A DNA stretch of 64,000 nucleotides from Rugalucina vietnamica. Its lineage: Eukaryota; Mollusca; Bivalvia; Lucinida; Lucinidae. Below the pieces are notes generated by a model. It was not told where the DNA came from, did no database searches, and saw nothing but the letters and a program-made list of their open reading frames with translations. The DNA lies in NCBI GenBank assembly GCA_964017185.1, contig OZ024878.1, positions 19,347,851 to 19,411,850 on the forward strand, given 5' to 3'. Position numbers and translations under genes: made by a program. The stretch's first letter is position 1; each line of letters opens with the position of its first letter. Positions 11,188 through 46,657 of this stretch are shown here, piece after piece.

Positions 11188-14100
11188 ATGGCGAAAACGC
11201 TTTGTATTTCTGTTTTTATCGGTGTATTTGTAATTGTTTCTAGCTTAGATGATCCAGAAAAATGTCAGTGTGATAATCCTGCCCACTGTAACCCAATAGA
11301 CAACTGGGACAATGCTGACAGAGAGGTATTTATTTAATTGCCAATTAACAAGTACTACCTTTCACAAAAAATGTTCCCTGGTTACAGGTAAGAACCAGAA
11401 ATAAAATACCTCATTGTATTAAAACTGCCCTTAGTACATAAGTCAGCATAATAGCACATGTTGACAACTGTTCACCAGTTTTATTAGCTCACCTGAGCCG
11501 AATTAAGGCTCACAAGGTGAGCTTATAGTAAAATTAGTATAGTAGTCGAGCCGGCGTCCGTCCGTGCGTGCGTCCACATTTTCAAACTTGAATATCTCTA
11601 AGACAACAAGGCCAATTGTGACCAAATTTTATCTAAAGCATCATTGAGGAGGGGGAAAGGTTGCATTAGGTTTTGGGCCAGGTCGGATCAGAACTCTGGT
11701 TTCCATGGCAACGGATAGCTCCCATAGACTTACAATGGGAAAAAACATATAAAAATCTTCTTCTCTGAAACCACAAGGCCAAGAGCTTTCATATTTTGTG
11801 TGAAGCAATGTCCTCTTCATAAATCCTGCCATACATGCCCCTGGGGTCCATACGGGCCCCGCCCCGGGGGCGTCATAGTGAAAATATAAAAAAATCTTCT
11901 TCTCTGAAACCACAAGGCCCAGAGCTTTCATATTTTGTATGTAGCAATTAGTGTTTCCCCTAGCCACTTTTACTATGGCGCCGCGCCATGCCCTTTTTCC
12001 CAGCGCCATGCCTTTTTCTGAATCTACATTCTGTGCCCTACATTTTGGTAAAAAGTTTGTCAAAATCGGACTAAAAATAAGGAAGTTACAAGACTTTTTG
12101 CTTGGTCTGCAGAAACAAATTTGGCATAAATTTATGATCATGACTTCCACAGTTATTGATTCAATGCCTTGTTTATTGTCACTTAATTACAGTGGCAAAT
12201 GTTGATAATTACTCAATGACAATTACCATTACCCAATTTGACACCAGAATCAGAAAAGGTGTGAAAATTGAATGTCCCACCTGGTAATATAAGTGTGCCA
12301 TTTAATTAGTTTCAATTATCAATAGTTTACTTTTCAAAACAAATCATGAGTGAGGTTATCTCTTATGGTTAATTCAGTATTAAAGAAATGTGAGGCAAAG
12401 GGAAAGAAACTTTCTAGGTTGTCTCTGGTAAAAGTGAATCCTGAAATATGGAAATTGAAGAAACAATTTAAGCTGAAAAGCAAATTTGAAATAAAGAATA
12501 TACAATAAATGTTAAATTTAATGACTGTGCATAAGTGTGCCCTCCTAGTACATGTGTATGCCATGGGCCACTTAAAGGTGCCCTTTTGGTGCCGTCGCGC
12601 GCTGAAAAGGCCATTTTGACGTGTTGCCGCGCGTTTAAAAGTGCCCTTTTTTAGCAACCTTACCATGCCCTTTTTTGGGACTGGGGGAAACACTAGCAAT
12701 GTTTAGTGGTCCTCTATTTAAATCCTGCCAATCATGCCCCTGGGGTCAAAAATGGCCCTTCCCGGTGGTCATTAGCTCCCTTAGACTTACAATGGGAAAA
12801 ACATAAAAAATCTTCTTCTCCAAAACCACAAGGCCCAGAGCTTTCATATTTTGTCAGTAGCAATGTATAGTGGCCTGCCAACCGTGCCCCTGGGGTCCAT
12901 ACGGGCCCCACCCTGGGGGCTTCATGGGAAAAACATAAAAAATCTTCTTCTCCGAAACCACAAGACCCAAAGCTTTCATGTTTTGTGTGTAGCAATGTAT
13001 AGTGGTCCTCTTTATAAATTCTGCCAACCGTGCCCCTGGGGTCAAAATGGCTCGCCCCGGGGGTCATTAGCTCCCATAGACTTACAATGGGAAAAACAGA
13101 GAAAATGTTCTCCGAAACCACAAGGCCCAGAGCTTTCATATTTTGTGTGTAGCAATGTATAGTGGTCCTCTTTATAAATCCTGCCAACCGTGCCCCTGGG
13201 GTCCATACGGGCTCCGCCCCGGGGGGGTCATGGGTAAAACATAAAAAATCTTCTGCTCCGAAACGACAAGGCACAGAGCTTTCATGTTTTGTGTGTAGCA
13301 ATGTATAGTGGTCCTCTTTATAAATCCTGTCAACCGTGCCCCTGGGGTCCATACAGGCCACGCCCCGGGGGCATCATGGGAGAAACATAAAAAATCTTCA
13401 AAACCACAAGGCCCAGAGCTTTCATATTTTGTTTGTAGCAATATATAGTGTTCCTCTTTGTAAATCCTGCCAACCGTGCCCCTGGGGTCCATACGGGCCC
13501 CTCCGAAACCATATGGCCCAGAGCTTTCATATGTTGTGTGGACCAATGTATAATACTCTCCTTTATAAGTGCTGCCAACGGTACCCCTGGGGTCCATACA
13601 GGCCACGCCCCAGGCATGTCATTATCTACCATAGACTTATAATGGAAATATATGAAAAAATCTTCTCTGCAACAGCACGACACAAAGCTAGTATACATTG
13701 TATTTGATATACAACATTGTCATGTGGAGCTCTACGTAAATCCTGCCAATCTTGCCCCTGGGGTCAAATATGGCCCCACCCCGGGGGTCATTATAGGACC
13801 CTGACCTTGTTAGATGATTTTTTCAAGTGAACCAAAATGGCAGAAAAGAGGATACACAATCCAGACATGAGCTCTTCTGCTGATGTAAGTAGGGTTTCAA
13901 GGTCACATAACCAAGATGGCCACCATACCCATATATGGTAAAAACCCAAATTACTTTGTCCAGTGACTGTACTTGTTGACTCTCAGGTGAGCGATCATTG
14001 CCCTTGGGCTACTATTTTAACCTCAAGAATTGTTTAGTGGCACATGTCAACTGTTGTGAAGTATTTTAGGAGAAAGAGACCATGTCCCGAGCCAGGATCG

Positions 14101-16833
14101 AACCCGGATCTCCGGCGTGACAAGCGACCACTCTCCATGTAGCTAAAGAGCTTGCCCAACAGCAAGGCTGTTGGAAGTGTCCTTATTCACAATATTCCTC
14201 CCCACTTTATCTTTGAGGGCTTGGCAGTGGAGAAGTGAAATTAATAACTTGAGAGCAGTATTCTCAGCAGGGAACACAGAGTAATGCTGCTAACATTACT
14301 CCTGCATCTGCACGCTCCCTGAATTCCACAAAGACCATACACCCGTATGCCACACACTGCGCCCTTTCTGTGCAATTTACCTCGTCGCTAATGAAGTATT
14401 TTAGGAGAAAGAGACCATGTCCCGAGCTGGGATCGAACCCGGATCTCCGGGCTGACAAGCGACCACTCTAACCATGTCGCTAAAGAGCTAGCCCGACAGC
14501 AAGGCTGTTGGAAGCTCGGGGGGAACTACCTATATATGGCGATAAAAATAATAAGTTAAAGAGGCAAATTTAGATATCCAAATAATAAAAAATATCACAG
14601 CATAATCATGTCTCACACTCCCGGACCAAAGTAGTGTAGCAAAGCGTCACGTAAAGCTTCTTCACCTACACTCACCGTCTCTGGAAGTGACCAAGCCTGG
14701 TGCCACCAGCAGAACGGTGCCCAAGTGTATGTGTTTAAAGCAGCAGTCTTGATAATATGTATTTTTTTTACATGCGCATCCTGGTAACTTGATCCTATCA
14801 AAATACTGTTACAGTATTCCTACTGCCATATTTTTCCAGGTAATCATTGCCACAGAGGGTCCTGAGAAAGACTTTTACGAGAAATGGATGTGGGAGTCAA
14901 TCACCACCGTCCTGCAGACCCACGATGGCATCACTAACAAAAATGAACTCATGTGCTACACACACTTAAAGGGAGGAAAATATGGTTTCTTTATTGATAT
15001 GCCAGTGACATACGATGTGAAGGACCCTAAACTGGAGACATTTGTGAATGAAACATTTCCTAAGACTATAAGAATGCACAATGCTGATATTGTTGCATTA
15101 GATCTTCTGAAACTTCTTGGAGATTGTAACAATACGGAAAACCATATCAATCCTATAGTACAGGTGGTAACACAGGTTATCACCCAGACTAGGTCAAAGT
15201 TTCCAAAACTGAAGGTAATTACACGATCCGCGACGCGAGAGAACTGGGCTTCAGGGTTTCCAACCAGGTCTGACACAAACCGGCCTGTGCAGTCACAGAA
15301 AGAGGCTAGAGAAGAAGTCTTAGAGTGGTTGTACTATTCATGTAGCGAAAACAAAGACTGGTCTTCGCCTTTGTTTTCGCATTGGCAAGTCTGATTTTCT
15401 CTTGACTCCTCTTCTTTTTTTTAAATCAAACTTTTTCTGCTGAATTTGTTTTTAGCTCGCCTGCACGAAGTGCATAGAGCTATTGTAGTCACCTTGGTCG
15501 TGCGCGTTTACGTGTGCGTCCGCGTCACACTTTCGGTTAAAGTTTTTTAAAAGTCTATATCTCTTGACCATGTTGATGGATCAAGTTGATACTTTGCATG
15601 TTGCTAGATATTGGTCTGAAGTATTACGCAGTACCATCATGACCCACCCTGGGTGACCTTGAGGTCAAGGTCACGGACTTAGAAATTTTGTGTTTTAAGT
15701 TTTTGGTTAAAGTTTTTGTAAGTCTATATCTCTTGACCATATTGATGGATTGAGTTGATTTATTTGCATGTTGCTAGATATTGGTCTGAAGTTTTGCGCA
15801 GTACCATTATGACCCACCCTGGGTGACCTTGAGGTCAAGGTCACAGACTTAGAAATTTTGTGTTTAAGTTTTTGGTTAAAGTTTTTGTAAGTCTATATCT
15901 CTTGACCATATTGATGGATTGAGTTGATACTTTGCATGTTGCTAGATATTGGTCTGAAGTTTTATGCAGTACCATCATGACCTACTCTCGGTGACCTTGA
16001 GGTCAAGGTCACAGACTTAGAAATTTTGTGTTTAAGTTTTTGATTTAAGTTTTTGTAAGTCTATATCTCTGGACCATGTTGATTGATCGAGTTGATACTT
16101 TGCATTTTGGTAGATATTGGTCTGAAGTTTTATGCAGTACCATCATGACCTACCCTGGGTGACCTTGAGGTCAAGGTCACAGACTTAGAAATTTTGTGTT
16201 AAATTTTATGGTTAAAGTCTAAATCTCTTGAACATGTTGATGGATAAAGTTGATACTTGCATGTTGATAGATATTGGTCTCAGGTTTTATACTGTACATC
16301 ACAACTCACCTGGATGACTTTGAGGTCAGGGTCACGGACTTGGAAGTTTTGTGTTTAAGTTTTGGTTAATGTTTTTATAAGTCTATATCTCTTGAACATG
16401 TAGATTGATCAAGTTGATACTTTGCATTGGTCTGAAGTTTTATGTTGTACCATCATGACCCACCTGAGTGACCTTGAGGTCAAGGTCATGGGTCATAGAT
16501 TTTAACAGATGTAGTGGCAAAGCACAAGTCAGGCGAGCTACGCTGTCCTGCGACAGCTCTTATTGTGATATTTATTACATGCATTTTTGCTCAAAATATT
16601 GATTGTGGATACCTTTTAGAACTGCCTCAGCTAACAAGTCCCCTCAATCTACATGTTAAGTAATAAGTATTACATGTAGTATCAAAAACAAGAAAAAAAT
16701 TGTAATATTGGGATGTACAGGGCTATACATTGCACCGACATGTTATCCAGTTGAAATCCTAGCAGTAAGTTGTTTAAATATTAATGTTCTTTAAAAATAA
16801 CTATAAAATTTTATTCTTTTGATTTTATTCTTT

Positions 16834-16876
<43 letters not shown>

Positions 16877-19800
16877 TGCAAATACATGTACATGTGCTTG
16901 TATTTTAAAATGTCATAATTCACAATTTTTTCCTATTCACTTTAGTTTTTGTGTGTGATGCCATGGAAACCACCATGTTACGAGTACAACTGCGGGGTAA
17001 CCCCAGCACTACAGCCTCACTGTGATGGTATCATTATAAACCCAGAGAGTTTCTCTACGTACTGTAGTAACTCATGCAGAGCGAGAGCTACCATGCCATT
17101 CACCAAACTTTTCTATGGTAAGAGGAAAAAATCTTATTTTCAACCTATTGCATATTATTGCATAAATACCTGTGTCACACAATATTAACAGCCGTTTATT
17201 AGTGAAGAGAAAGCCATGCATTAATATTGCAATTCAGGCGTGCACATGCTGTTAATACATGGCTTTTACTAATGCTTGTTACCGATATGCCCAGAACGAG
17301 CATAAAAAACCGAAAGCTTTTACGCGTATGAAATGGTGATGAGGCTTTAAAATATAGTGCACCATTATTTCTTTCGTTTCTGCAGAATTTATGCAATAAT
17401 AGCGATCAAAAATGATTTTGTCATACACAAACATTCGCTAGGTCCCTCGGGCAGTGTTGAAAACTGAGGGCATAGCCATGATAGCCCTCAGTTTTCAACA
17501 CTCCCTTATGTTAATGAATGGAAAATCATGTTTGATCCCTATATTGAAAAGACACGACTGTCATAAAAATTATGTCCCTTGGCACCAGAAAATTGAGTTG
17601 TATTAAAGCTGTGTGCTTGAATGCAGAAAGAAGAGGGTGGCAGCCAGGTTGTTCTATTCATGAGGAGAACAAGTGTGCTTGACATTACAAAATAAAACCA
17701 ACCAGTAAGGCAGCCCCCGTGGCTGAGTGGTTAAGAGCACTGATATTTCATTACCCCGCTTAACTATTTGATCATCTAGCTCACTGCTGTGTCGCATGTG
17801 AGCTCGAGTCCTACACTGGGCACATGTGAGACAAGCCAAGTTCTGCTTGCGGGTGTGCTATGTGATTTTTCTTGGGGTTCTCCCTTTTTTGCCCCACCTA
17901 CTGATTGGCCCATCTCATGTGAGCTGAAATAATCTTAAAAGGGATGTTAAACTGAATAAGACAAAAAGTATGGCAGTAGTCTGAATTATAAAACCATTTA
18001 ACTGATATGATTTTGAAAAATTTAAAAAACTATGATTTTTAATTCATTCAACTTTTATTTGAAAATATACATATGAGTCGCTGCATGGGAAAACCAACAC
18101 TCTGCATAGGCGAAAACAAAGGCGCAGATCAGCTTCGCAGTAACTGCGAAGCTGATCTGCGCCTTTGTTTTTTGCTACACAGATAGCACAATTCCTCTTC
18201 TTTCTAAATCCAAAATTTCCAGCCTCTATCCATCTTCTGTTACTGTACAGCCCTGTTTGTGTCTGACCTGGTCAGAAACCCAAATTGTTGGTTTTGTCAC
18301 GCACATGCTCATATGTCATATAAAGCCATTTTATCCTGTTCTAGGCTTGGATGACTATGAGGCCACTGGTGTAGACCTTGATCAGATTATCATTGGTATA
18401 CCATGGTTTGGGTACAACTACACGTGTGAAACATTCTCCAACAACTCTAACTCAGCGGTATATATAAGTCAAACATGAGAAAAACTAGGGAGGCACAGCT
18501 GATCAATGCCTTTGTTTTCGCTTCACAGATTGTACAATTACTCTTCTTCTTAAATCCAAAATTTCAAGCTTCTTGCCAGCCTTTGCGGCTTTACAGACTG
18601 GTATGTGTCAGACCCCGAATCCCGGTTTTCTAGCGTCACGACTCAGTTAACTACCAACTATCAGAAAATGGTTAACTCAGTACAACAAGTCTTTAGATAT
18701 GGATAGATAGAACTACATGTATTCTGTTATATGTAAAACTGGCTAACGACCTGCTCATAGTCTTCTCTGTGTATGCCTGGGGCCAGTTGTTCAAAACTTC
18801 GTTAGCTTAACTTCATCGTTAAGACCTTAGCTTGTTAAGTAAATGCAGACTACATAAGCAAATGCACTGTTACTTTTTGTTGATAAAATGTGAGAATCCT
18901 TTGCAATGCAAAGGATTCTCACATTTTTTCAACAAAAAATAACTGTATTTGTAATATTGCCATTTGAAATTTTAACGAATCGTTAACTAACGACATCGTT
19001 AACTTTGAACAACTGGCCCCTGATTGGTAACTGGCAATTAAGTTAAACAACAATCAGGTTGTTGTTACACAACACCCTAAATTGGTTCCTGTGCATAAGC
19101 TTAACAGTTTACCTGACCTACCTTATGGGTTTACAATATGGCTGTAGTTAACATGTGGCATGACATTTCTCCTAACATAATGAAGATGGTCATGTAATGA
19201 ATGTCCCCTTATACCCAACTTTTGTATAGTAAAACTGGGGTAAACATGGGTATACATGTTCTCTTATTTTTGATCTAAAATAGATTGTTGGTACACCTCA
19301 GCGAGGCTAAAAATATCAAATTCTTTCAAATAAAATTTTCAAAGCTGAAAAAAATCTCTTTGGTCAAGTTTTCGTGATGACGTGTTTTAGGCTGATAATC
19401 TATGCTCACTGAAGACGAAGATGGTGAACAAAACAACTGCCGGTGTCACAAAAGAGGTCCAAGTCTGTGACGTTGAAGGTTCCCGACAGAAAGTTAAATT
19501 GGGTGATTTTTACGACAACAACCCAGATCTAATGATGGACACGAGGATCTACAGCCGCTCACAACAGGCTCCCTCCATGACAGGGAAGGTAGGATATGAA
19601 AAGGCACATAATTGGTACAAAAATAGGTACAAACACATTTGTGCCTATTTTGTACCTTATTTCAGTATGGGATGAAACATGTTCAAAAATTTGTGCCTAT
19701 TTTGTACCTTATTTCGGTGTTAAAAAGATACTCACATGTAAAATGGGTATGTATGTGCGCCCTGTGTTAAAAAAGAAGTGGGAGGGGGGCCTTGAGGTTA

Positions 19801-22800
19801 TAAAACTTTTTAGCTCGCCTGTATGAAAGTACAGGAAGAGCTATTGTAATCACTTCGGTGTCTGTGTCGGTGTCGGCGTTCTCGTTTCTCAAATGTTAAA
19901 GTTTTTGGTTAAAGTTTTTATAAGTCTATATCTCTTGAAGATGTTGATTGATCCAGTTGATACTTTGCATAGTGGTAGATATTGGTCTGAAGTTTTATTC
20001 CGTACCATGACCCACCCTGGGTGACCTTGAGGTCAAGGTCACAGACTTAGAAATTTTGTGTTAAAGTTTTCGGTTAAAGTTTTTATAAGTCTATATGTCT
20101 TGAACATATTGGTGGATCAAGTTGATACTTTGCATGTTGGTAGATATTGGTCTGAAGTTTACGCAGGACCATCATAACCAACCCTGAGTGCCCTTGAGGT
20201 CAAGGTCATGCACATAGAAATTTTGTGTTAAGTTTTTGGTCAGTGTTTGCATAACTTTATATCTCTTGAACATGTTGATGGATCAAGTTGATACTTTGCA
20301 TGTTGGTAGATATTGGTCTGAAGTTTTATGCAGTACCATCATGACCCACCCTTGGTGACCTTGAGGTCAAGATCACAGACTTGAAAATTGTGTTATAAAT
20401 TATGTCTATATGTCAAGTCTATATGTCTTGAATATGTAGATGTATCAAGTTGATACTTTGCATGTTTGTAGATGTTGGTCTGAAGTTTTATGCTGTACCA
20501 TCACGACCCACCTGAGTGACCTTAAGGTCAAGGTCATGGGTCATAGATTTTGATAGATTTAGTGGCAAAGCACAAGTCAGGCGAGCTACGCTCTTATTAT
20601 ATGCTCAGCTCATCTGAGACAAAAATTTATCCTGCTCATAAATGTTAAAATGCCAACATTTAGGAGCAGGATAAATTACAGGCTTTGGTGATCTGAACCT
20701 TAAATTTCAATTTATTTTGGCTATTTCAGTATTTGTGAGCAATTTAAATTTTACACTCAGCTGAGTTGATCATGAAAATTTTAATAACCTTGATTATTGA
20801 TAAATTTCATACATTGTAGGATGCCAACAACAAAACCCATATGATTTGGTATGAGGACTATGCCAGTTTATCGGCCAAATATTCTGTAGTCTATCACCAC
20901 GGTGTCAAAGGTAAGAGAAATCACATAGCAGATACAATCCTTTGGAAGCAGTGAAAATGTTTAAAGGGAGGTAGTATGGGCCATATTGCGCATTTTCAGG
21001 TACTGAACCCTCATCGGTGAGCCTTTATAAACAGGCCTGCAATGGAACCTTATGCCTGGCTCATTTCTTTAATAAAGCTTTTGATCATGAAGGCAATTTC
21101 TTTTGCAATTCCTCCTTTTTCCCTGATTCAAGAATTGTTAGCTCACCTGAGCCGAATGCTCACAAGGAGAGCTTAAAGGATGGCCATGCTCCGGCGTCCA
21201 TCCGTCCGTCGTCCGTTGTCCGTCATCCACAATTTCAAAGATCTTCTCCTCTCAAACCGCTGGGCCAATCAAAGCCAAACTTCATGTGGAGCATCCTTGT
21301 GAAGGGGGAACGAAAGTTTACATAAATTGTCCAGGTCAAGATGGCCGCCATGGCTATGAATAGCAAAAACGTTTAAAAAGCTTCTTCTCCAGAACCAGTG
21401 GGCCGATTTCCACGAAACTTGGTATGTAGCATCGGGGACGCAGGCCTATCATAGTTTATATAAATCATGACCCTAGGATGACCTTGTCCTATTTTACGGC
21501 AAGGTCAACTTAGGTCGCCAATGCATTTGAATGGGAAAAAATGGTAAAATGCTATTTAATGGGTAAAACTTACTGGGAATAGGTAAATGGACAGAAGATT
21601 AATGTTAATGGAAAATTTTAGCCCCTGGTGGGGTTGTCTGCCCCTGCCCCGGGGCTATATACATGTATATGACCATAATATTCAAACATCTTCTTCTCTG
21701 AAACCGCTATGCCAATCAAAGCCAAACTTCATGTGGAGCATCCTTGGGAAGGGGGAATGAAAGTTTATATAAATGATCAAGGTCACATGACCAAGATGGC
21801 CGCCATGGCTATAAATAGCAAAAATGTTTAAAAATCTTCTTCTTCAGAACCAGAAGGCCTATGATTTTGAAACTTGGTGTGAAGCATCTGGGAATGGAGC
21901 TTTACAAAGTTTATATAAATCATCACCCTGGGATGACCTTGAGCTATTTTACGACAAGGTCAACTTAGGTCTCTTATGCATTGGAATGGGAAAAAATAGG
22001 AAAATGTAATTAAATGGCAGAAAACTTGCTAGAAATGAGCAAATGGACAGAAGAGTTATGCTTTTGAAAATATTTTAGGCCCAGGGTTTGTCTGCCCCTG
22101 CCCCGGAGCTATATACATGTAGATGACCATAATATTTTAACAGCTTTTTCTCAGAAACTGCTTAGCCAATCAAAGCCAAACCTTATGTGGAGCATCCTCA
22201 GGAAGAGGAAATAAAAGTTTATATAAATGGTCAAGGTCACATGACCAAGATGGCCACCATGGCTATAAATAGCAAACATTTTTAAAAAGAACCAGAAGGC
22301 CTATGATTTTGAAACTTGGCATGAAGCATTAAGGAACGGAGGTCTACAAAATTTGTATAAATCATGACACTGGGATGACCTTGACCTATTTCACGGCAAG
22401 GTCATCTTAGATCGCCCATGCATTTGAATGGAGAAAATTGTTAAAATGTCATTTGAAGGACAAAACTTGCAGTTAATTGGCAAATGGACTGAGTTATTCT
22501 GATCCTGCCCTAGGGTTATATACATGCATTGTACCATTCAAGTCTAACAAGTTTATTGGTACATGTATATATCTCAGGTCTCAGGTGAGCGTTTACAGGA
22601 CCATTGGTCCTCTGGTTTTAATTGTTGATGGAAATGTGCACTAAATACTGGTATTCTGCCTCTGGTAGACTTGCTCAGAAACTGAAGGACTGCCTTGCTT
22701 TTGGTAGACGTTATGTACTTCTTTATATGAGTCGCCTCATAGGAAAAACCAACAATCTGCATAGGCGAAAACAAAGACGCAGATCAGCTTCGCGGTAACC

Positions 22801-24813
22801 GCGAAGCTGATCAGCGCCTTTGTTTTCACTACTCGGATAGGACAATTCCTCTTCTACTTAAATCCGAAATTTCAAGTGTCTAGCTCTTTTCTGTGCTTGT
22901 ACAGGCCGGTTTGTGTCTGACCTGTTCGGTAAACCACATTGTTGGTTTTCCCACGAGGCGGCTCATATAATAGAGGCTGTCAGTATAGTTGCATGCCCAT
23001 GAACTTTGTCACTTGGTTACTAAATACTGTAAATCCAGAAATTTTTGTTTGACCCTATTTTGCATATTATCTATTTCAAATTTACAAGCGAGTTTTTTAA
23101 TTTGCGAGGGGGCACTTGTGTGTTCTTAAAGCCTTATTTAAGCATTTTATTTGTGAGAACTTTGAATTAGCAAGTCATTGAATTTGCAAAAAATAGCGAA
23201 AATTAAGTTCTTGCGAACATTTCCGAACTTACAGTACTATACTTTTGCAAGGACTTTTAAAAAAAACACATGATTACAAAACAGCAGTCATGATTGGTTG
23301 TATATGACATGCATGTATATTACAGGCTGTATAGTGTACACGGCTGATGATTTGTCCCACAGCACGGTGAAGACCGGTAACCAGTTTAATAACGAGATGT
23401 TTGCCTGGTTACTACATACTATACTGGCTACCAGCACACATGAATACAAACCACAAACCAGAAATGTGGCAGGTAGGTGGAAATTGAGCCTGTGCATGAG
23501 AAAACCAACAATGTGGGTTTATGACCAGGTCCGACACAAACCAGACTGTTCAGTCTTATAATAAAGATAGAAGCTTGAAACTTTGGGTATAAGTAGAAGA
23601 GGAATTGTACTATCCGTGTAGTGAAAACAAAGACGCTGATCAGCTTCGCAGTAACGGCAAAGCTGATCTGCGCCTTTGTTTTCGCCTATACAGATTGTTG
23701 GTTTTCCCATGCGGCGGCTCAATATAAAAATTTATATGGGCCGCGAATCGAGAAAACTGGTCTTTGGGGTTTCCAACCAGGTCTGACACAAATCGGCCTG
23801 TATAGTCACAGAAAATTGGTAGAAGCTTGAAATTTTCTATATGAATAAAAGAAGAATAGTACTTCTGTGCAGCGAAAATAAAGGCGCTGATCAGCTGTGC
23901 AGTCACTGCACAACTGATCTGCGTCTTTGTTTTCGCATAGGCAAGAACAGATTTTCTCATTATGCGACTCATATGAAACAAGTTATTATTTGGTTAATTT
24001 TAGATATTAGATTGTTATAAAATACCCTTTAAAAATTTTGTGATTTAAACAAATGTGCATCATGCTCTCAATAAAAGATACCTACAGGCTGGTTTGTATC
24101 AGACCTGATTGGAAACCCAAAGACCGTTTTTCTCGCATCACAGCTCATATGTACTTACATTTACAATAAACTTGAAAGTAAATCAAAATCATCAATGTAA
24201 AACTTGTACAAAGAAATTTTTACAAAGATAAATCCTTTATAAAACTATAAATCAAATTAAAAAGGTGAAGACAATGATCAGACGTCTGCACCTGTATATC
24301 TGTGTTGTATGGAATTCAATTTAAATTATCATCTTGAGACTCTCATGCCTAATTTGTGTTTGCAGTAAAGGGGCTAGACAGTGGTTACAAATGACCCGTG
24401 CATCATTGTCAATTCGAAAATGTTTAAGTTAGTGAGAACTTAATTTTTGCTAATATTCGCGAATTTGTCGCCTCGCAAAAATAAAGTTCTCGCTTATCAA
24501 GAATTATCATTAGCTTTATAGACTCGCTCACGAATTCAAGAACTTGCTAATAATTCGTAAATCAAAAATTGGCGAAATAAAAGTAACACGAAAATTTCCG
24601 AACTTACAGTATTGTAGCATTTCATTAACTTTACCAGTGTTTATAGGGCTGGTGGCCGGCGTTGGAATCGGAATGTTTGTGTTTGGAGTACTGCTGGGAG
24701 CCATCATAGCGTGTATACGATTCAGACAAAAAGACAAGCTCCTTCCACCGTTCAGGAGAGACTATCACAAGAGTCAGGAAGACGAATACCATGACGATGA
24801 CCCTGGTTTATAG
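11188..24813 (+). CDS. CTBS-like: Membrane-anchored di-N-acetylchitobiase-like GH18 protein, catalytic motif degenerate
   Basis: Eight exons join in phase: 11188-11325, 14840-15214, 16946-17117, 18345-18457, 19391-19588, 20820-20910, 23326-23472 and 24638-24813, all with GT/AG borders, giving 469 residues. Residues 1-20 are a signal peptide (MAKTLCISVFIGVFVIVSS). The next part, CQCDNPAHCNP, matches the Cys-rich start of lysosomal chitobiase, and ITTVLQT, ELMCYTHLKG, IIIGIPWFGYNYTCETFS and MIWYEDYASLSAKY align with CTBS blocks. CTBS normally removes reducing-end GlcNAc from chitobiose cores in lysosomes through a DGINIDIE motif. Here the aligned residues 129-136 read DIVALDLL, so the catalytic Glu is a Leu. 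The SYDEQ region is also changed (NPESF). Residues about 412-436 form one transmembrane helix (FIGLVAGVGIGMFVFGVLLG) and are followed by a basic then acidic cytoplasmic tail ending DDDPGL. Several N-glycosylation sequons are present (NETF, NNTE, NYTC, NKTT, NKTH). It is probably a type I membrane pseudo-enzyme or lectin-like protein. Family assignment is strong; function is inferred. Confidence 0.9.
11486..14012 (+). mobile_element. Family A Helitron-like repeat, copy A1, with internal tandem units
   Basis: It starts AGCTCACCTGAGCC...GGCTCACAAGGTGAGCT, a 5' hairpin, and ends near CTCAGGTGAGCGATCATTGC. Inside, from about 11750 to 13800, a 140-180 base unit is repeated about eight times (core CAAGGCCCAGAGCTTTCAT and TGCCAACCGTGCCCCTGGGG). 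The many overlapping minus-strand ORFs across it are repeat translations, not genes. It lies in intron 1 of the CTBS-like gene and is interrupted by the hAT-like element at 11949-12693. Assignment to Helitron/Helentron type is tentative. Confidence 0.7.
11949..12693. mobile_element. Non-autonomous hAT-like element nested in A1
   Basis: The left end TAGTGTTTCCCC and right end GGGGGAAACACTA are inverted repeats of hAT type. GCAAT is present on both sides (GTAGCAAT left, CTAGCAATG right), and the flanking repeat unit resumes after the element. GCCCTTTT words recur near both ends. No transposase is encoded in about 745 bases. The exact target duplication (5 to 8 bases) is ambiguous. Confidence 0.75.
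14063..14200 (-). mobile_element. tRNA-derived SINE, copy 1
   Basis: The minus strand reads AGCTCTTTAGCTACATGG...GGTCGCTTGTCACG...GATCCGGGTTCGATCCTGGC, a D-arm, an anticodon-arm and a B-box region. The plus-strand flank GAAGTATTTTAGGAGAAAGA is shared with the second copy at 14390, so the two are direct repeats in intron 1 of the CTBS-like gene. Confidence 0.65.
14390..14515 (-). mobile_element. tRNA-derived SINE, copy 2
   Basis: Close direct copy of 14063-14200. The tRNA-like part (AGCTCTTTAGCGACATGGTT...CTTGTCAGCCCGGAGATCCG) is better preserved and most resembles a tRNA with a GTC-type anticodon loop. Flanking words are not tRNA-like. Confidence 0.65.
15222..15405. mobile_element. Hairpin MITE family C, truncated copy
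   Basis: It contains the family C landmarks GAGAACTGGGCTTCAGGGTT, GTCTGACACAAACCGGCCTG and TTCGCATTGGCAAGTC. The central hairpin is shortened to a TTTTC/GAAAA pair around GACTGGTCTTCGCC. It begins 8 bases after the exon 2 donor of the CTBS-like gene. Confidence 0.7.
15454..16562 (+). mobile_element. Family B Helitron-like repeat, copy B1
   Basis: It starts AGCTCGCCTGCACGAAGTGC and ends AGGCGAGCTACGCTGTCCTG CGACAGCTCTT, where GCTGTC/GACAGC forms a terminal hairpin. Between them lie about five and a half tandem units of roughly 165-172 bases, each with GTCTATATCTCTTGA, TTGATACTTTGCATGTTG and TGACCTTGAGGTCAAGGTCA. The architecture resembles the oyster Pearl-type or Helentron non-autonomous elements, an assignment made by analogy. 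It is in intron 2 of the CTBS-like gene. Confidence 0.7.
16838..16871. repeat. Poly-T run
   Basis: Homopolymer of about 34 T in intron 2 of the CTBS-like gene, about 75 bases before the exon 3 acceptor. Confidence 0.95.
17402..17545. repeat. Palindromic MITE
   Basis: The outer arms ATAGCGATCAAAAATGATTTT and AAAATCATGTTTGATCCCTAT pair, as do GAGGGCATAGCCATGATAGCC-type inner arms around AGTGTTGAAAACTGAGG and CCTCAGTTTTCAACACT. It is a compact fold-back element in intron 3 of the CTBS-like gene. Confidence 0.7.
17713..17970 (+). mobile_element. tRNA-derived SINE
   Basis: The head GTGGCTGAGTGGTTAAGAGC is an A-box and GAGCTCGAGTCC a B-box-like site, with serine- or leucine-tRNA-like spacing. The body (TTCTTGGGGTTCTCCC) and the tail AATCTTAAAAGGGATGTTAAAC follow. 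The insertion at the variable region excludes a functional tRNA. Confidence 0.7.
18071..18312. mobile_element. Hairpin MITE family C
   Basis: The terminal inverted repeats ATGAGTCGCTGCATGGGAAA ACCAAC and GTTGGTTTTGTCACGCAC ATGCTCAT enclose the central perfect hairpin GCAGATCAGCTTCGCAGTAA CTGCGAAGCTGATCTGC with AACAAAGGCG/CGCCTTTGTT extensions. It ends about 30 bases before CTBS-like exon 4. Confidence 0.9.
18477..18650. mobile_element. Hairpin MITE family C, truncated copy
   Basis: It retains GAGAAAAACT, CAGCTGATCAATGCCTTTGT TTTCGC, CAATTACTCTTCTTCTTAAA TCC and the end GGTTTTCTAGCGTCACGACTC. The left arm of the central hairpin is missing. It begins about 20 bases after CTBS-like exon 4. Confidence 0.7.
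18777..19022. mobile_element. MITE with GGGGCCAGTTGTTC terminal inverted repeats
   Basis: The ends GGGGCCAGTTGTTCAAAAC and GAACAACTGGCCCC pair, then GTTAGCTTAAC and GTTAACTAACG words. In the centre TGAGAATCCTTTGCA and TGCAAAGGATTCTCA form a perfect hairpin. Non-coding. It lies in intron 4 of the CTBS-like gene. Confidence 0.8.
19812..20600 (+). mobile_element. Family B Helitron-like repeat, copy B2
   Basis: It starts AGCTCGCCTGTATGAAAG and ends AGTCAGGCGAGCTACGCTC. It has about four tandem units like those in B1. The terminal hairpin is reduced compared with B1, and a fold-back MITE (20601) abuts it directly. Confidence 0.7.
20601..20777. mobile_element. Fold-back MITE of the CTCAGCTCATCTGAG type
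   Basis: The arms ATGCTCAGCTCATCTGAGAC and CTCAGCTGAGTTGATCAT pair, with inner arms TTTATCCTGCTC/GAGCAGGATAAA around TAAATGTTAAAATGCC. Full copies lie at about 35048-35261 and 38688-38903. It ends about 42 bases before CTBS-like exon 6. Confidence 0.75.
21140..22614 (+). mobile_element. Family A Helitron-like repeat, copy A2
   Basis: It starts AGCTCACCTGAGCCGAATGC and ends CAGGTGAGCGTTTACAGGAC CATTGGTCCTCTGG before a T run. AGGACCATTGGTCCT is a 3' hairpin followed by CTCTGG, which fits a Helitron CTRR-type end. About three internal units of roughly 430-450 bases carry TCAAAGATCTTCTTCT-like starts, GACCAAGATGGCCGCC and GATGACCTTGACCTATTT. It is in intron 6 of the CTBS-like gene. Confidence 0.75.
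23030..23240. mobile_element. MITE ending GAACTTACAGTA, copy 1
   Basis: It begins TACTGTAAATCCAGAAATTTT and ends AATTTCCGAACTTACAGTAC-like, an inverted pair, with GCGAG/CTCGC and AAGTTCTTGCGAAC inside. A related copy lies at 24410-24615. It is non-coding, in intron 6 of the CTBS-like gene. Confidence 0.65.
24410..24615. mobile_element. MITE ending GAACTTACAGTA, copy 2
   Basis: Related to 23030-23240 (AGAACTTAATTTTTGC, CGCCTCGCAAAAATAAAGTT, TTTCCGAACTTACAGTATT). It ends about 25 bases before the acceptor of CTBS-like exon 8, so it may supply part of the polypyrimidine/branch region. Confidence 0.65.
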
Positions 24814-25106
24814 GAAATGGAAATAATAGGAGCTATGTTGCAAACTTGAAAGTAAACCTGTCTTCAAGGTGTCCTAGGGGAGCATGGGGGCTTAGTGGAA
24901 AACCTCAAGGTGTCCTGGGAGAGCATGGTAGCTTAGTTGTTAGTGTACCATACTCAACATACTATAGTGCAGTTTAGCTGAATTTGGTCTAAAAACCAGG
25001 ACAATAGGTTTTCTTGCAACACTGCTCAGTCAGTTTCGAAGAAATACTTTGTTTTGTAACAAGGAAGTTATAACACAAACCAGGAAGAAAATTACATATC
25101 AAATAT
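24814..25106 (+). other. Probable 3' UTR of the CTBS-like gene
   Basis: The sequence after the stop is not visibly repetitive apart from two copies of CTCAAGGTGTCCTRGGAGAG-like text (24863-24885, 24903-24925). No AATAAA was seen before the MITE cluster resumes at 25107, so the transcript end is unknown. Confidence 0.4.
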
Positions 25107-26479
25107 ATGAGCCACATCATGAGAAAACAGGATTATTGCTTATGCAAAAGGTGTAGATCAGCTTCACAAGCTTGGTAGTAACTGCGTTGCTGATCAGTGC
25201 CTTTTTCTCACCACACGGATAGTGCATTTTCTCTTCTTCCTAAATCCAAAATTTTCAGCCTCTAGCAATCTTCTGTGCTTATACAGCTGGATTTGTGTCA
25301 GACCTGTTCGGAAACCACATAATTTGTTTTCTCATGACACGGCTCAAATAATGACTCAAACCAGGTATGAGCTGCGTCATGTGAAAACGGGTTATTGCCT
25401 ATGCAAAAATTGCCTATGCGAAAACAAAGTCGCAGATCAGCTTTGCAGTAACTGCACAGCTGATCATTGCCTTTGTTTTCTCTATACCAATAGTAAAATT
25501 TCTCTTCTTAAATCCGATATTTCAAGCTTCAAACCATCTTCTGTGACTGCAGGGGCCTGGTTGGGAATCCGGAAGACCGGTTTTCTCGTGTCGCGACACG
25601 TATCATATATGCCATCCAGTCTTGTCTTTCCTGTATTGTAGTACAAATGAGCCTGTGCGTGAGAAAACCAACAATTTGGGTTTCAACCAGGTACGACACA
25701 AACCGGCCTGCACAGTAACAGAAAAGAGCTAGAAGCTTGAAATTTCGGATTTAAGTAGAAGAGGAATTGTACTATCCGAGTAGCGAAAACAAAGGCGCTG
25801 ATCAGCTTCGCGGTTACCGCGAAGCTGATCTGCGCCTTTGTTTTCGCCTATGCAGATTGTTTGTTTTCCCATGCACAGGCTCAGATATGTTAATTTAGGC
25901 TTTATCTCTATATGAAATGAGCCACTGCATAAGAAAACCAACAAAATGCTTGGGCAAAAACAAAGGCACAGATCAGCTTCGCGGTAACCGCGAAGCTGAT
26001 CAGCGCCTTTGTTTTCGCTAAACAGATAGTACAATCCTTCTTCTTGTTAAATCCGAAATTTCAAGTCTCTAGGCTGCTTCTGTGACTGTACAGGCCGGTT
26101 TGTGTCGGACCTGCTTGGAAACCCAAACTGTTGGTTTTGTCATGCAACAGCTCAAATAATAAATGAGCCGCCTCGTGGGAAAACCAACAATGTGGTTTTT
26201 GAACCGGTCCGACAAACACCGAGCTGTACAAGCACAGAAAAGAGCTAGAAGCTTGAAATTGTGGAGTTGGAAAGTAGAGGAATTGTAGTATCTGAGTAGC
26301 GAAAACAAAGACGCTGATCAGCTTCGCGGTTACCGCGAAGCTGATCTGCGCCTTTGTTTTCGCCTATGCAGATTGTTGGTTTTCCCATGGGGCAGCTCAA
26401 ATCTAGCGACAGTAGATCAATCAGTATCATGTCCAATTTGAAATGGAGCAGACCTGTGATTGATCTCAACATCCATTAG

Positions 26480-26770
26480 AAAACTTGCCCATGCAATATA
26501 CAGATATTTTTTAAGCTTTAAAAATTTAAAATGTTGAGCTGAAATTTTTTTGGATATTTTTCATATTTTTGCTCAAAACCTAGATTGTGGGTACACGTTA
26601 GAACCGCCTCAGCGAGGCGTAGAACTGCCTGAACCAGGCAGTTCTAACGAGTACCCACAATCTATGTTTTGGATCAAAAATAAAATATGTATACCCCTGC
26701 TTACCCCAGTTTTGCTATATAAAAGTGGGGTTTGAGGGGGTACACATTTCACGGACATGTTTTCCTGATG
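26480..26770. mobile_element. MITE family D (CCCACAATCTATGTTTTG type)
   Basis: The arms ATTGCCCATGCAATATACAG... and ...CGGACATGTTTTCCTGATG flank a hairpin: TCAAAACCTAGATTGTGGGT ACACGTTAGAACCGCCTC against GGCAGTTCTAACGAGTACCC ACAATCTATGTTTTG, followed by TACCCCTGCTTACCCCAGTT TTGCTATATAAAAGTGGGGT. Similar copies occur at 34205, 37975, 40425, 40680, 44595 and 56570. Fragments lie at about 16575 and 19200. Confidence 0.8.
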
Positions 26771-28278
26771 TAGCACGTTTCTTTTATGAACATTCGGTCG
26801 TGAGAACATTTCAAGGACTATTCCTTCCCTTCTGCCGAATCAAGACAATTTGTCAGTTAGTGGTGAAAGAAATGTGCACTAGGTACTGGTAACCTGCCTC
26901 AGGCAGGCTGGCCCTAGAACGATGTGGTTAGGATAACTGATTGTCCTACTGTGACCTTAGCTGTTGACTGTCAAAGTAAAGCACTTAATCACAAAATTTG
27001 TGGGTGAGAAATTTGAGCCTGTGCATTAGAAATCCAACAATTTGGGCGTATAACCAGGTCCGACACAAACCAGGCTGTACAGTCACAGAATAAAGCTAGA
27101 CGCTTGAAACTTTGGATATAAGTAGAAAAGGAATGGTACTATCCGAGTGGCGAAAACAAAGGCGCTGATCAGCTGTGCAGTTACTGCACAGCTGATCTGC
27201 CCCTTTGTTTTTGCCTATGCAAATTGTTGGTTTTCTCATGTGAAGGCTCAAATAATATTTTTGTGTAAAATAACTATAACTATAAAAGTCAGTTATAGTT
27301 AGATTTATCTTCGAAAATGAACAATTTGTAGGATAGAGTGCATCAAAATGGTGCATATTCTTAAGTGCATTAGAATGGTGCATAATGGTGTAGTATTGAT
27401 AAACTTGCCACAAATGAGCTGCCTCATGAGAAAACCAACTATCTGCATATGCGAAAACAAAAGGCGCAGATCAGCTTCGCAGTAACTGCGAAGCTGATCA
27501 GCACCTTTGTTTTTGCTACATGGATGGTACAATTCCTCTACTTTCTAAAATCAAAATTTCCAGTCTCTAGCCATCTTCTGTGCTTGTACACCTCAGTTTG
27601 TGTCGGAACTGTTCAAAAACCATGTTGGTTTTCTCAAAACGTGACTCAAATGTTTCCTATTTTAGTCACACATGACGCTGGCACATGTTTTAGCCTAGAA
27701 TAAACTGACATTGGGATGGCTTGATTCAATTACTCCAGCTATTTATAGAATCTCATGACATATGAGCCGCCTCGTGGGAAAACCAACATTGTGGTTTCCG
27801 AACAGGTCCAACACAAACCAGCCTGTACTAGCACAGGAAAGAGCTAGAGGCTTGAAATTTCGGATTTAAGTAGAAGAGGAATTGTACTATCCGAATAGCG
27901 AAAACAAAGGCGCTGATCAGCTTCGCAGTTACTGCGAAGCTGATCTGCGTCTTTGTCTTCGCATATGCAGATTGTTGGTTTTTCGTACGAGGCGGCTCAT
28001 ATTTTGACACAAGAGTTGGTGAAAGCTGTGCCTGTGCGTGATGAACACAATTTATTTTGTTAAAAATCCCTATGACAGGTTTTGTAAACTGTTCTTGAAA
28101 AATAGTTCAGACTTTGATATATTTCGTCCAATTGATTGTCATATTTACTGTCCTTTTATTTGTGTTGTGTTTTATACCACAATTTGAGTGTTTATATTCT
28201 GATTAACGTTGCTTAATTTCTGTTGTGTTTATTTAGTTATCCAAAATTTGAGTGCTTAAATTCTAGTTGTGGTGCTTT

Positions 28279-28279
28279 T

Positions 28280-28336
<57 letters not shown>
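28279..28336. repeat. (CA)n microsatellite
   Basis: About 28 uninterrupted CA dinucleotides, likely polymorphic in length. Confidence 0.97.
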
Positions 28337-28339
<3 letters not shown>

Positions 28340-28923
28340 CATAATGCTGAACTCCTGGAGAAGAAGTTGCTGAGTTTTAATTCCTATTCCTATTCTGCAA
28401 ATCTGCAATATGTTGTGTCTTGAAACAAACCTTAGTTCTGGAATGTGTCTAGAAAGTGGTGGCTTCACCCTATATTGTACAACAAGGCTTAAAAATTGTT
28501 AACTAGGGTGTGAACTTGAAAGCAACAGCACTAACAATACACAAATACATTACATGAGCTGTGACGCGAGAAAACCAGTCTTCAGGTTTTCGACCAGGTC
28601 TGACACAAACCAGCCTGTACAGTTACAAAAGCAGACTGGAACCTTGAAATTTTGGATTTAAAAGAGGAGGAATTGCACTTCTGTGCAGCGAAAACAAAGG
28701 CGCTGATCAGCTTCGCAGTTACTGCGAAGCAGATCTGCGCCTTTCTTTTCGCATATGCAAAACTCTGGTTTTCTCATGACACAGCTCACATTATAAAAGC
28801 ATGCATTGTTCACCCCACCAGATATTGCATGAAAAAATTGCATTGAGGAACCCACCAATACATACATACACTTAATGATGGTCATTCATTTTGTAAAAAG
28901 TCATTTTGAAGTTGTTGTTTTTC

Positions 28924-35443: not shown

Positions 35444-38400
35444 TCATCTGACTACATCTTGTCCATCAGAACTGATCAGTATCTCCAGAAGCTTGGTCGT
35501 ATACTCTAGTTCTTCCTGAAAGTACAGTAAAACTTCATTAATGTAAATGACAAATGGATTTTCCCATCATTATCATTTGGGTCAGTCTACTTTCATTTTT
35601 GGGGGCATCAGGAGTGATTTTTAAATTTTATTCATTTTTCAATGATAATTCTCAAAGCAAACAGAATAGCCCCAGATGGGATGACGCATTCTCTGGGGCT
35701 ATGCTGTTTGCCTATGTCCCACAAAAAGAATGCCAGGCTTATATGAGAATGTAAATGACTAATATATGAAGCGCCTCGTGGGAAAACCAACAATGTGGTT
35801 TCCGAACAGGTCCAAAACAAACCGGCCTGTACAAGCACAGAAAAGAGCTAGAAGCTTAAAATTTCGGATTTAAGCAGAAGAGGAATTGTACTATCCGAGT
35901 AGCGAAAACAAAGGCGCTGATCAGCTTCCCAGTTACCATGAAGCTGATCTGCGTCTTTGTTTTCACCTATGCAGATAGTTGGTTTTCCCATGAGGCAGCT
36001 CATATGTCTCATACGATCATGAATGTCTATAGCACTACACATGACAGACCTGTCATCTATATGGAGGTTCTTGTGAAGAAATGAAAAAAAATAGCTCAAC
36101 ATATCTTAAAATGCGCAAAATATGGATGCTGTGTGGATTTGGTTCAATGTGTTTTCTAAAATTGATCAAGCCTCATTGACAGGTGCCTACCCCAGATTTC
36201 TTGATAGGGGTGGTTTAAATTTTCCAAGTTCTCTTTTTAATTTCACCTATTTTTTCTAAAATTTTCATACAAAAAGGTGAACCAAATGTCCCTTAGGCGG
36301 GTCAAGTGAACTTCCACTAAATCTGCCACAGCCTTAAGACTGGACATCAGACCTACCCTATATGCATCTTTCCCTTTCAGCTCTTGTTGTCTTCCTTTCA
36401 ATAGCTCTATTGTTCTCAGTTCTGGACGTAGACATTCGGAGACACTGCGAGGATGCTCACTGACGATGGCAAGCAGGGCTGACATTAAATGTTCATGGAA
36501 GCCAGAATGTTCCTCACACAGATGGCCGACAAGTTGATCTATCATCCCTATATCACACAGAATATCTGGAAATAAAATGATAAATTGTTAAAATAACAGT
36601 TAAATACATATTTCCCTGTCTATTGAGGGACATTAGATAAGGGACAGGGTACTAAAAAACTTTCAGAATACAGGTAGGGGCCAAAACAGGAAAAATCAAT
36701 ATTGATTGCAGAGGGAAGTGGAACTACAGGTATTATCTTTTCTGGGCCTCTTCATTACCACCTGCAGAGCCGTGATAATCACCTTATTATGACCTAAGGA
36801 TCATATTGCACCATTAGGGGTCATTAACCGAATAAACAGTGGTACCAGAGCTAAGCCTTGAGTGGGATCTATGGTTTCTTCATTTCAAAGCAATGCCGAT
36901 ATAATTTTTCTTGCTGACATAACGGAATTTTCAAGCTCCTAGCAACTGTTTGTATATTAATTTTAAGTCTTTTTTGTTAAACATGGGCAAACTGTATAGC
37001 ACAGGATGTGAGGCTGCAGAACGCAGTCCCACCTGGGGCTATTCTGTTAGCTTTAAGAGAATTTCGTCCAAAAATGAATACATGTGTAGGTATTTAAAAT
37101 AGCTCCTGACATTCCTATAAATGAAGCTGGACTCACCCAAAGGATGATCACTTTTAAAAACAATAGGATCCATAATCAGCATAGCTAAGCATGAAAACAA
37201 GGACTTTTATCAATAAAGAATGTTTTTTTTTAACAAAACAATATCAGCTGCGTCATCACTGATACACATTTTTGCTATACATAGTACCATCTATTTCCTT
37301 CCTTCATGCTCAAATGATAATCACTCTTTCTTGCACACCAGATAGAGAAATCCTACATTTTACCCCATGTGAGAAATTCTTATCTCACCCTTGTTATCTC
37401 ACCCCGGTCGCACCCTGCGTTCAGATGTTCTTTTTTTAACACTGGTTGTATAGGACGTCACGTAATTTTGTCGCTAAGCGCACACGTCACAATGACGTCA
37501 AAACGTTTTAAATCAAAATGGCGGATTTTATCATTTTTCTAGGTAAATAGTATAAAAATCAATCTTCGCTGCATTAAGGTGAGCAAGAAAAAGAATCCAT
37601 CATTCGTGTCAGGTATGGATAGACAAATCTGTCCCTTGCGTCACAATTTGGCATCACTCGGCAAGCCTCGTGATGCCAAAATGTGACCCTCGGGACAGAT
37701 TTGTCTATCCATACCTGACACTCATGTTAGATTCTTATATTCCTATCAGTACTAACCTTTATATTGTGGTTTATCAACAACAAAAGAACTCAAGAGAAAA
37801 GCCGCCTTTATTTTCAGTTTCTCAATGTTTGTTTGCATTGCCCTCATAAGAACAGAGAACCCATCATTTTCTGTGAATAATTTCTGTGCTGCTTCATTGT
37901 CTCTTGTTAAACCTGAAATTAGAGAAATATGAAGTAATATTAAGAATTCAAATACATCACAAAAACATGTCCATGTAATGTACATGTATATACCCCCTTT
38001 CCATGTAACGTATATACCCCCTTAAACCCCACTTTTATATAGTAAAACTGGGGTATATAGGGGTATATATTGTTTCTTATTTTTTATCCAAAACATAGAT
38101 TATGTGCCCACAATCAATGTTTTTTGAGCAAAAATAAGAAAAATATAAAAAAAAATTCTAGTGAAAATTTTCTTTTTCTGGAGTATTTACTTTCTGGAGA
38201 TAGACGTCAAGTTAAGCAATTCTGCTTCTTAGGAGCCGACTTTCAAGTGGTGGGGGAAAGCCAGGGCAGTTCTTGGCGTTCGATTGAGAAATACCCTGTG
38301 AAAACACCGCATCAGGAAGGTGACAGTCAAACCATTGATATATATTGATGCAGGAACCATTTGTGAATGATAGTTTTTTCAATAATCAATATTTTTTACT

Positions 38401-46140: not shown

Positions 46141-46657
46141 TGAGGTGAGATGGGAACATCAGAATTTTCACGAGTGCGCATAAAATGTTTATGTTTTCAA
46201 CTCATGAGATGAAATATATTTGGTATTCATCGAAAAAAAAGCAAATTTTCTTTTTATTTTATACAATTCATGGGCATTTTCCAATTCACAAGGCAGGCGG
46301 TGAAAATGCAAAAACCAAAACTTTTTGAAAACACAAATAATTTTGGTACCCCATTGTTCCTTACGTTCTAACTAAGAAAATGAATACCCACACTTCATGT
46401 TTTCGTTCATAAATAACGGAGTTATAGATGTTTGAATTTCTGAAGTGAGACACATTTAATGACGTCTATGATGTTTACACACAATCTCAATGTGTAAGAT
46501 GATCCACAGCAGAGAAATAAGGGTAAGCCCCTCTTCACCTAATCTCCATGTGCACATGAAAAGCACACATCCAAGCCACTTACTGACAAAGAGAAATTTA
46601 TCAAATTTCTTCTGTGCCTCCCTGATACTTTTTGCCTCGGCACTGGTGTGTTTAAGT
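46141..46657. other. Sequence between HSPBP1 upstream palindrome and the LINE ORF
   Basis: AT-rich and without a recognisable gene. The last part (from about 46480) is probably LINE 5' UTR, because the LINE frame stays open from 46490. No ORF1-like protein and no clear 5' boundary of the LINE were found. Confidence 0.45.

What the first reader, a model, noticed from the sequence alone, without database searches (positions are those of the whole stretch)
11188..24813. Chitobiase-family protein with a dead catalytic motif and a new C-terminal membrane anchor
The eight exons give a continuous CTBS-like protein, but the position of the GH18 catalytic motif (DGINIDIE in chitobiase) reads DIVALDLL at residues 129-136, so the proton-donor Glu is a Leu. 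The last exon adds a single transmembrane helix and a charged tail ending DDDPGL, absent from the soluble lysosomal enzyme. Cysteines and aromatic substrate-groove blocks such as IPWFGYNYTC are kept. This points to a membrane-held pseudo-enzyme or glycan-binding receptor, a plausible chitin/GlcNAc-sensing surface protein in a filter feeder.
Basis: partly seen in the sequence, partly recalled or inferred. Interest (0 to 1): 0.72.

Follow-up and report, generated by a model that had tools for sequence, protein, structure and literature searches.

The report
Membrane-anchored dead chitobiase-like protein
An animal-type gene encodes a relative of a sugar-cutting lysosomal enzyme that appears to have lost its cutting site and gained a membrane anchor, so it probably works as a membrane protein rather than an enzyme.

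Summary
Eight GT-AG exons (+ strand, 11188-24813) join without a stop into 469 residues, with a hydrophobic signal-like start and one C-terminal hydrophobic helix. In 27 alignment settings the proton-donor Glu faced Leu136 (13), Asn143 (11), Phe97 (2) or Lys107 (1), never an acid. 'Dead enzyme' is supported; 'substrate groove kept' only partly; chitin/GlcNAc sensing is untested. I favour a type I membrane pseudoenzyme. Membrane-anchored GH18 chitinases and Glu-less GH18 lectins are known; eight paper searches (two of them seen only at the top of long lists) showed no such chitobiase. No animal relative, transcript, structure or own-genome search was obtained.

The parts
11188..11325 (+). exon 1: start codon, signal-like segment (about residues 1-20) and N-terminal CQCDNPAHCNPI
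   Evidence: three Cys align with recalled CTBS
14840..15214 (+). exon 2: residues 47-171, with NELMCYTHLKGG and the altered beta4 segment DIVALDLL
16946..17117 (+). exon 3: residues 172-228, with the altered beta6 segment CDGIIINPES
18345..18457 (+). exon 4: kept beta7 block IIIGIPWFGYNYTC
19391..19588 (+). exon 5: insertion region and start of the QQAPSMTGK block
20820..20910 (+). exon 6: kept THMIWYEDYASLSAK block
23326..23472 (+). exon 7: altered beta8 (Trp to Tyr367) and end of the GH18-like region
24638..24813 (+). exon 8: hydrophobic helix (about residues 412-438), basic segment, charged tail, stop codon

Best explanation
A real gene, probably under constraint, for a type I membrane pseudoenzyme of the chitobiase-type GH18 family. 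The signal peptide sends a GH18-like ectodomain (about 390 residues, six N-glycosylation sequons) into the secretory path; the C-terminal helix holds it in the plasma membrane or an endosomal/lysosomal membrane, with a charged tail of about 30 residues in the cytosol. The ectodomain no longer cuts chitobiose, because the proton donor and the beta6 and beta8 residues of the catalytic sugar site are gone; it most likely acts by protein contacts or by altered glycan binding. Shown: gene structure, open frame, homology, residue losses, hydrophobic helix. Inferred: topology, inactivity, constraint, location, function.
For: Eight consistent exons and open frame. GH18 homology: Pfam 23.3 bits, E 5.8e-5; a profile of 87 sequences (80 genome loci, 6 plasmid proteins, recalled CTBS) scores 44.9 bits on residues 233-368; 23% identity over 378 residues to recalled CTBS, E 3e-26 in a one-sequence search. 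Ten Cys align with recalled CTBS. 27 alignments (3 sequence sets x 3 modes x 3 gap penalties, not independent, recalled CTBS in each): donor Glu opposite L136 13, N143 11, F97 2, K107 1; Met207 opposite N203, Tyr209 opposite E205, Asp210 opposite S206, Trp354 opposite Y367, each 27 of 27. In the 86 bacterial relatives, counted on one of the 27 alignments: Met 86, Tyr 86, Trp 84 (2 Tyr), Glu 86. Of 1133 pyrimidine-preceded AGs on both strands, only two, both in exon 8, open in phase into a 40-120 residue frame with a strong helix followed by at least four basic residues.
Against: No transcript, so the exon 7-8 junction is predicted. The Pfam score is below the curated 29.6. Profile matches cover the C-terminal half; hhalign put residues 136-157 on the helix before the motif and left the motif opposite a gap, so the donor position is not fixed. 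The Glu count of 86 of 86 is partly built in, because one of the two search patterns required that Glu. The exon-8 criteria were set after seeing exon 8. Selection could not be tested.
Confidence: 0.68

Rival explanations
1. Membrane-held chitolectin: a glycan receptor that binds chito-oligosaccharides or GlcNAc-containing glycans in the old substrate cleft, as Glu-less GH18 lectins do, and signals or clears particles.
For: Glu loss with the fold retained is the known route to chitolectins (PMC1945033, passages). Beta7 Pro248, Phe250 and Tyr252 and the His339/Trp342 block align in 27 of 27. A membrane-anchored oyster GH18 exists (PMC4457423, passages).
Against: Beta6 Met-x-Tyr-Asp and beta8 Trp are lost too; from recall, lectins such as CHI3L1 keep them. 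No binding data.
Confidence: 0.2
2. Decaying duplicate of CTBS under relaxed constraint, intact through youth or chance, without a settled function.
For: High divergence and several active-site losses; no relatives obtained to show conservation.
Against: Open frame over 469 codons in eight exons with all splice signals; Cys and core blocks kept; a coherent helix exon.
Confidence: 0.1
3. Soluble CTBS-like protein whose exon 8 is mis-joined; the true transcript ends in intron 7.
For: The homology ends in exon 7; reading on through the donor gives a stop about 29 codons later.
Against: Exon 8 has an acceptor in the right phase and a helix plus basic segment not matched by any other of 1133 candidate acceptors.
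Confidence: 0.07
4. Still an enzyme with a rearranged active site, for example using Glu205, which stands in place of the beta6 Tyr.
For: Glu205 stands there in 27 of 27 alignments.
Against: The substrate-assisted GH18 mechanism (recalled) needs the beta4 Glu, and its beta8 partner is changed too.
Confidence: 0.04

Closest known systems
Di-N-acetylchitobiase (CTBS, GH18, lysosomal)
   Same: Signal-like start, N-terminal CxC...C, ELMCYxHxKG, GxPWxGYxYTC, QxAP...KD...HxxWY blocks; alignment over 378 residues at 23% identity (CTBS recalled)
   Different: No donor Glu, no beta6 Met-x-Tyr-Asp, no beta8 Trp; added C-terminal helix and charged tail
Bacterial YaaH/SleL-type GH18
   Same: Best PDB sequence rows 4wiw, 4s3k, 3cz8, 4s3j (E 0.0049 to 0.16, weak); shared C-terminal half
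   Different: Active-site residues kept in the 86 aligned; membrane anchors were not tested in them
Chitolectins (CHI3L1 group; CHID1/stabilin-1 interacting group)
   Same: GH18 proteins that lack the catalytic Glu (PMC1945033 passages)
   Different: Other GH18 groups in that paper; no chain so named was hit at E 10 in the PDB sequence search
Oyster Ca-Chit (C. angulata) and the C. gigas chitinase with a transmembrane domain
   Same: GH18 protein held by one C-terminal transmembrane domain (PMC4457423 passages)
   Different: 3288-base ORF (abstract start) with two putative catalytically active domains and a Thr-rich region; described as related to molluscan chitinase 3, not chitobiase

Membership tests
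GH18 (Pfam PF00704) | profile match above the curated cutoff | tested here: not met
   23.3 bits against 29.6, E 5.8e-5, residues 229-370; homologous but divergent
GH18 (Pfam PF00704) | DxxDxDxE with proton-donor Glu | tested here: not met
   0 of 27 alignments place an acid opposite the Glu
GH18 active enzymes | beta6 Met-x-Tyr-Asp and beta8 Trp | tested here: not met
   N203, E205, S206, Y367 in 27 of 27
Chitobiase (CTBS) group | closest to chitobiase among GH18 groups | tested here: inconclusive
   378-residue match to recalled CTBS; no chitinase, CHI3L1 or SI-CLP chain hit in the PDB at E 10 (that such chains are held is recalled); no tree with animal GH18 groups was possible
Chitobiase (CTBS) group | soluble lysosomal enzyme | tested here: not met
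   C-terminal hydrophobic helix and lost active site; solubility and location not tested
Chitolectins | catalytic Glu lost | tested here: met
Chitolectins | GH18 fold kept | tested here: inconclusive
   sequence homology only; the one fold job did not finish
Chitolectins | binds chito-oligosaccharide | not testable with these tools
   needs a binding assay
Membrane-anchored GH18 | single C-terminal transmembrane helix after the GH18 domain | tested here: met
   hydropathy and exon test; a prediction from DNA, no transcript

The most novel reading that the evidence does not exclude
A new class of animal membrane receptor or scaffold: a chitobiase turned into a type I transmembrane pseudoenzyme, with a rebuilt pocket (Glu205 and Ser206 on beta6, Tyr367 on beta8) that recognises a different ligand and passes a signal or sorting cue through its charged tail with two tyrosines.
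Probability: 0.2. Interest if true: 0.65.

Novelty: new variant of a known kind. Interest (0 to 1): 0.4.

Why it matters
PMC1945033 (passages) places Glu-less animal GH18 proteins among chitolectins; I saw no transmembrane or Glu-less chitobiase in the lists of eight paper searches (shown in full; one search showed 15 of 92 and one search showed 12 of 1,572). If conserved, this would show a lysosomal degradative enzyme turned into a membrane-bound non-enzyme, and would warn against reading 'di-N-acetylchitobiase' labels in invertebrate transcriptomes as enzyme activity.

Tried and rejected
A second GH18 gene or an intact catalytic motif in the window: tblastn of the protein found only its own exons below E 0.03, and the six-frame motif scan printed nothing. 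Relatives of the window protein in viral contigs (1 and 25 pattern matches, none confirmed) and genome contigs (17 pattern matches, none confirmed). NCBIfam: no match at E 1. Plasmid tblastn gave 13 weak records: 7 annotated as GH18, 3 without annotation under the match, 3 Rhizobium records in other genes taken as chance; 7 of the 13 were fetched. Tetanus light-chain rows in the PDB search (three rows, E 0.18 to 0.21) cover residues 213-272 only and are taken as chance. Pfam TMEM260-like and Ecl1 rows (E 0.022 and 0.062) are below their cutoffs and taken as chance.

The same genome search on the window's own genome was made 13 times and never answered, so a second, active CTBS remains open. 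ARAGORN found no tRNA.

Full report
Observation. Reading the + strand and joining eight exons gives 469 residues, with GT-AG at all seven introns and consistent phases. The other two forward frames of the joined exons carry 29 and 39 stops and the three reverse frames 16, 17 and 34; 0 of 5000 base shuffles stay open. DIVALDLL is at 129-136 as claimed. The protein begins with a hydrophobic signal-like segment and has one long hydrophobic helix near the C-terminus (best 19-residue mean 2.64 at 420); the last 32 residues hold 7 basic and 8 acidic ones and end DDDPGL. No dedicated signal or membrane predictor was available.

Is exon 8 more than chance? Of 1133 AGs preceded by a pyrimidine-rich stretch on both strands (542 +, 591 -), three open in the required phase into a 40-120 residue frame with a strong helix near its start: two nested AGs of exon 8 itself and one at 36339. 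With at least four basic residues after the helix only the two exon-8 AGs remain. The criteria were set after seeing exon 8.

What it is. Pfam gives GH18 at E 5.8e-5, 23.3 bits, below the curated 29.6. The PDB sequence search gives seven rows up to E 10: four GH18-type (GH18, YaaH, ydhD, cortical-lytic enzyme; E 0.0049 to 0.16) and three tetanus light-chain rows taken as chance; no row is named chitinase, CHI3L1 or SI-CLP. That such chains are in the PDB is recalled. A profile of these 80, six plasmid-borne relatives and CTBS scores the window protein 46.8 bits, of which the best stretch, residues 233-368, gives 44.9.

Catalytic residues. I aligned the window protein with recalled CTBS alone, with CTBS and six bacterial relatives, and with CTBS and 86, in three MAFFT modes and three gap penalties: 27 alignments, not independent of each other. 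Opposite the donor Glu stood Leu136 in 13, Asn143 in 11, Phe97 in 2, Lys107 in 1. Against any fixed placement: the profile-profile alignment put residues 136-157 on the helix before the motif and left the motif opposite a gap, and that began at residue 155. None of these puts an acid at the donor. The Asp two residues before the Glu faces Asp134 (13), Asp141 (11), Asp105 (1) or Gly95 (2).

Independently of that placement, beta6 Met-x-Tyr-Asp is Asn203-x-Glu205-Ser206 and the beta8 Trp is Tyr367 in 27 of 27. Among the 86 bacterial relatives, counted on one alignment, Met and Tyr are kept in 86, Trp in 84 (Tyr in 2), and the beta6 Asp is Asp in 70, Glu in 11, Ala in 2, Ser in 2, Gln in 1. Glu in 86 of 86 is partly a product of the search pattern. 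The roles of these residues in GH18 are recalled knowledge. Gly246, Pro248, Phe250, Tyr252, His339 and Trp342 face their CTBS counterparts in 27 of 27; Phe250 stands for a Tyr that 85 of 86 relatives keep.

Interpretation. That argues against enzyme activity and also against a simple chitolectin, since recalled chitolectins keep the beta6 and beta8 residues. The kept blocks lie in the second half of the domain and may be structural. The most likely working mode is a membrane-held pseudoenzyme that binds a protein partner or a different ligand (0.68, allowing altered glycan binding); a classical chito-oligosaccharide receptor gets 0.2. Chitin sensing in a filter feeder is not excluded but nothing here shows it, and nothing here tested that the species is a bivalve.

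Known context. Glu-less GH18 chitolectins and the chitobiase, chitinase and CHID1 groups are described in PMC1945033 (12 of 26 passages and one section seen). Membrane-anchored oyster GH18 chitinases are described in PMC4457423 (passages). Chitobiases are labelled in other animal data, without residue checks in the passages seen: flatworm larva cells (PMC10396302), a bivalve GH18 tree (PMC6359903), limpet radula (PMC9263180), an annelid with two forms called extracellular (PMC11083476). Eight paper searches listed no paper whose title or abstract start names a transmembrane or Glu-less chitobiase; one search showed 15 of 92 and one search showed 12 of 1,572, and most subscription papers are outside that library. 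So I rate it a new variant of a known kind.

Limits. 

Noticed in passing
18110-57119, 31 sites, 20 of them in 22765-28752: A 25-base motif AGCTGATCTGCGCCTTTGTTTTCGC occurs 31 times with up to 3 mismatches (0.00 expected); 24 of the 31 form 12 facing pairs 40 bases apart, as arms of a palindromic repeat, probably a mobile element.
   Followed up: partly
15531-16488 and 19894-20536: Tandem arrays of periods 168 and 165 bases in introns 2 and 5 that look related by eye; further arrays of period 146 at 13087-13499 and 455 at 21227-22437.
   Followed up: no
46472-49900 +: An open frame of 1143 residues with reverse transcriptase (E 8.6e-40) and endonuclease domains and a sub-cutoff PHD-like finger: a non-LTR-type retrotransposon.
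   Followed up: partly
57558-58586 +: Frame with an FHA domain (Pfam FHA_2, E 2.2e-6) followed by a Lys/Ser-rich stretch, perhaps an exon of a DNA-repair type FHA protein (the repair reading is recalled).
   Followed up: no
36246-36587 -: 114-residue frame that looks by eye like an Hsp70 nucleotide exchange factor exon (HSPBP1/SIL1 type, recalled); Pfam gave no match at E 0.01.
   Followed up: partly
16946-17117: Glu205 stands in place of the beta6 Tyr that all 86 aligned relatives keep, an acid in the old sugar pocket; its role is open.
   Followed up: partly
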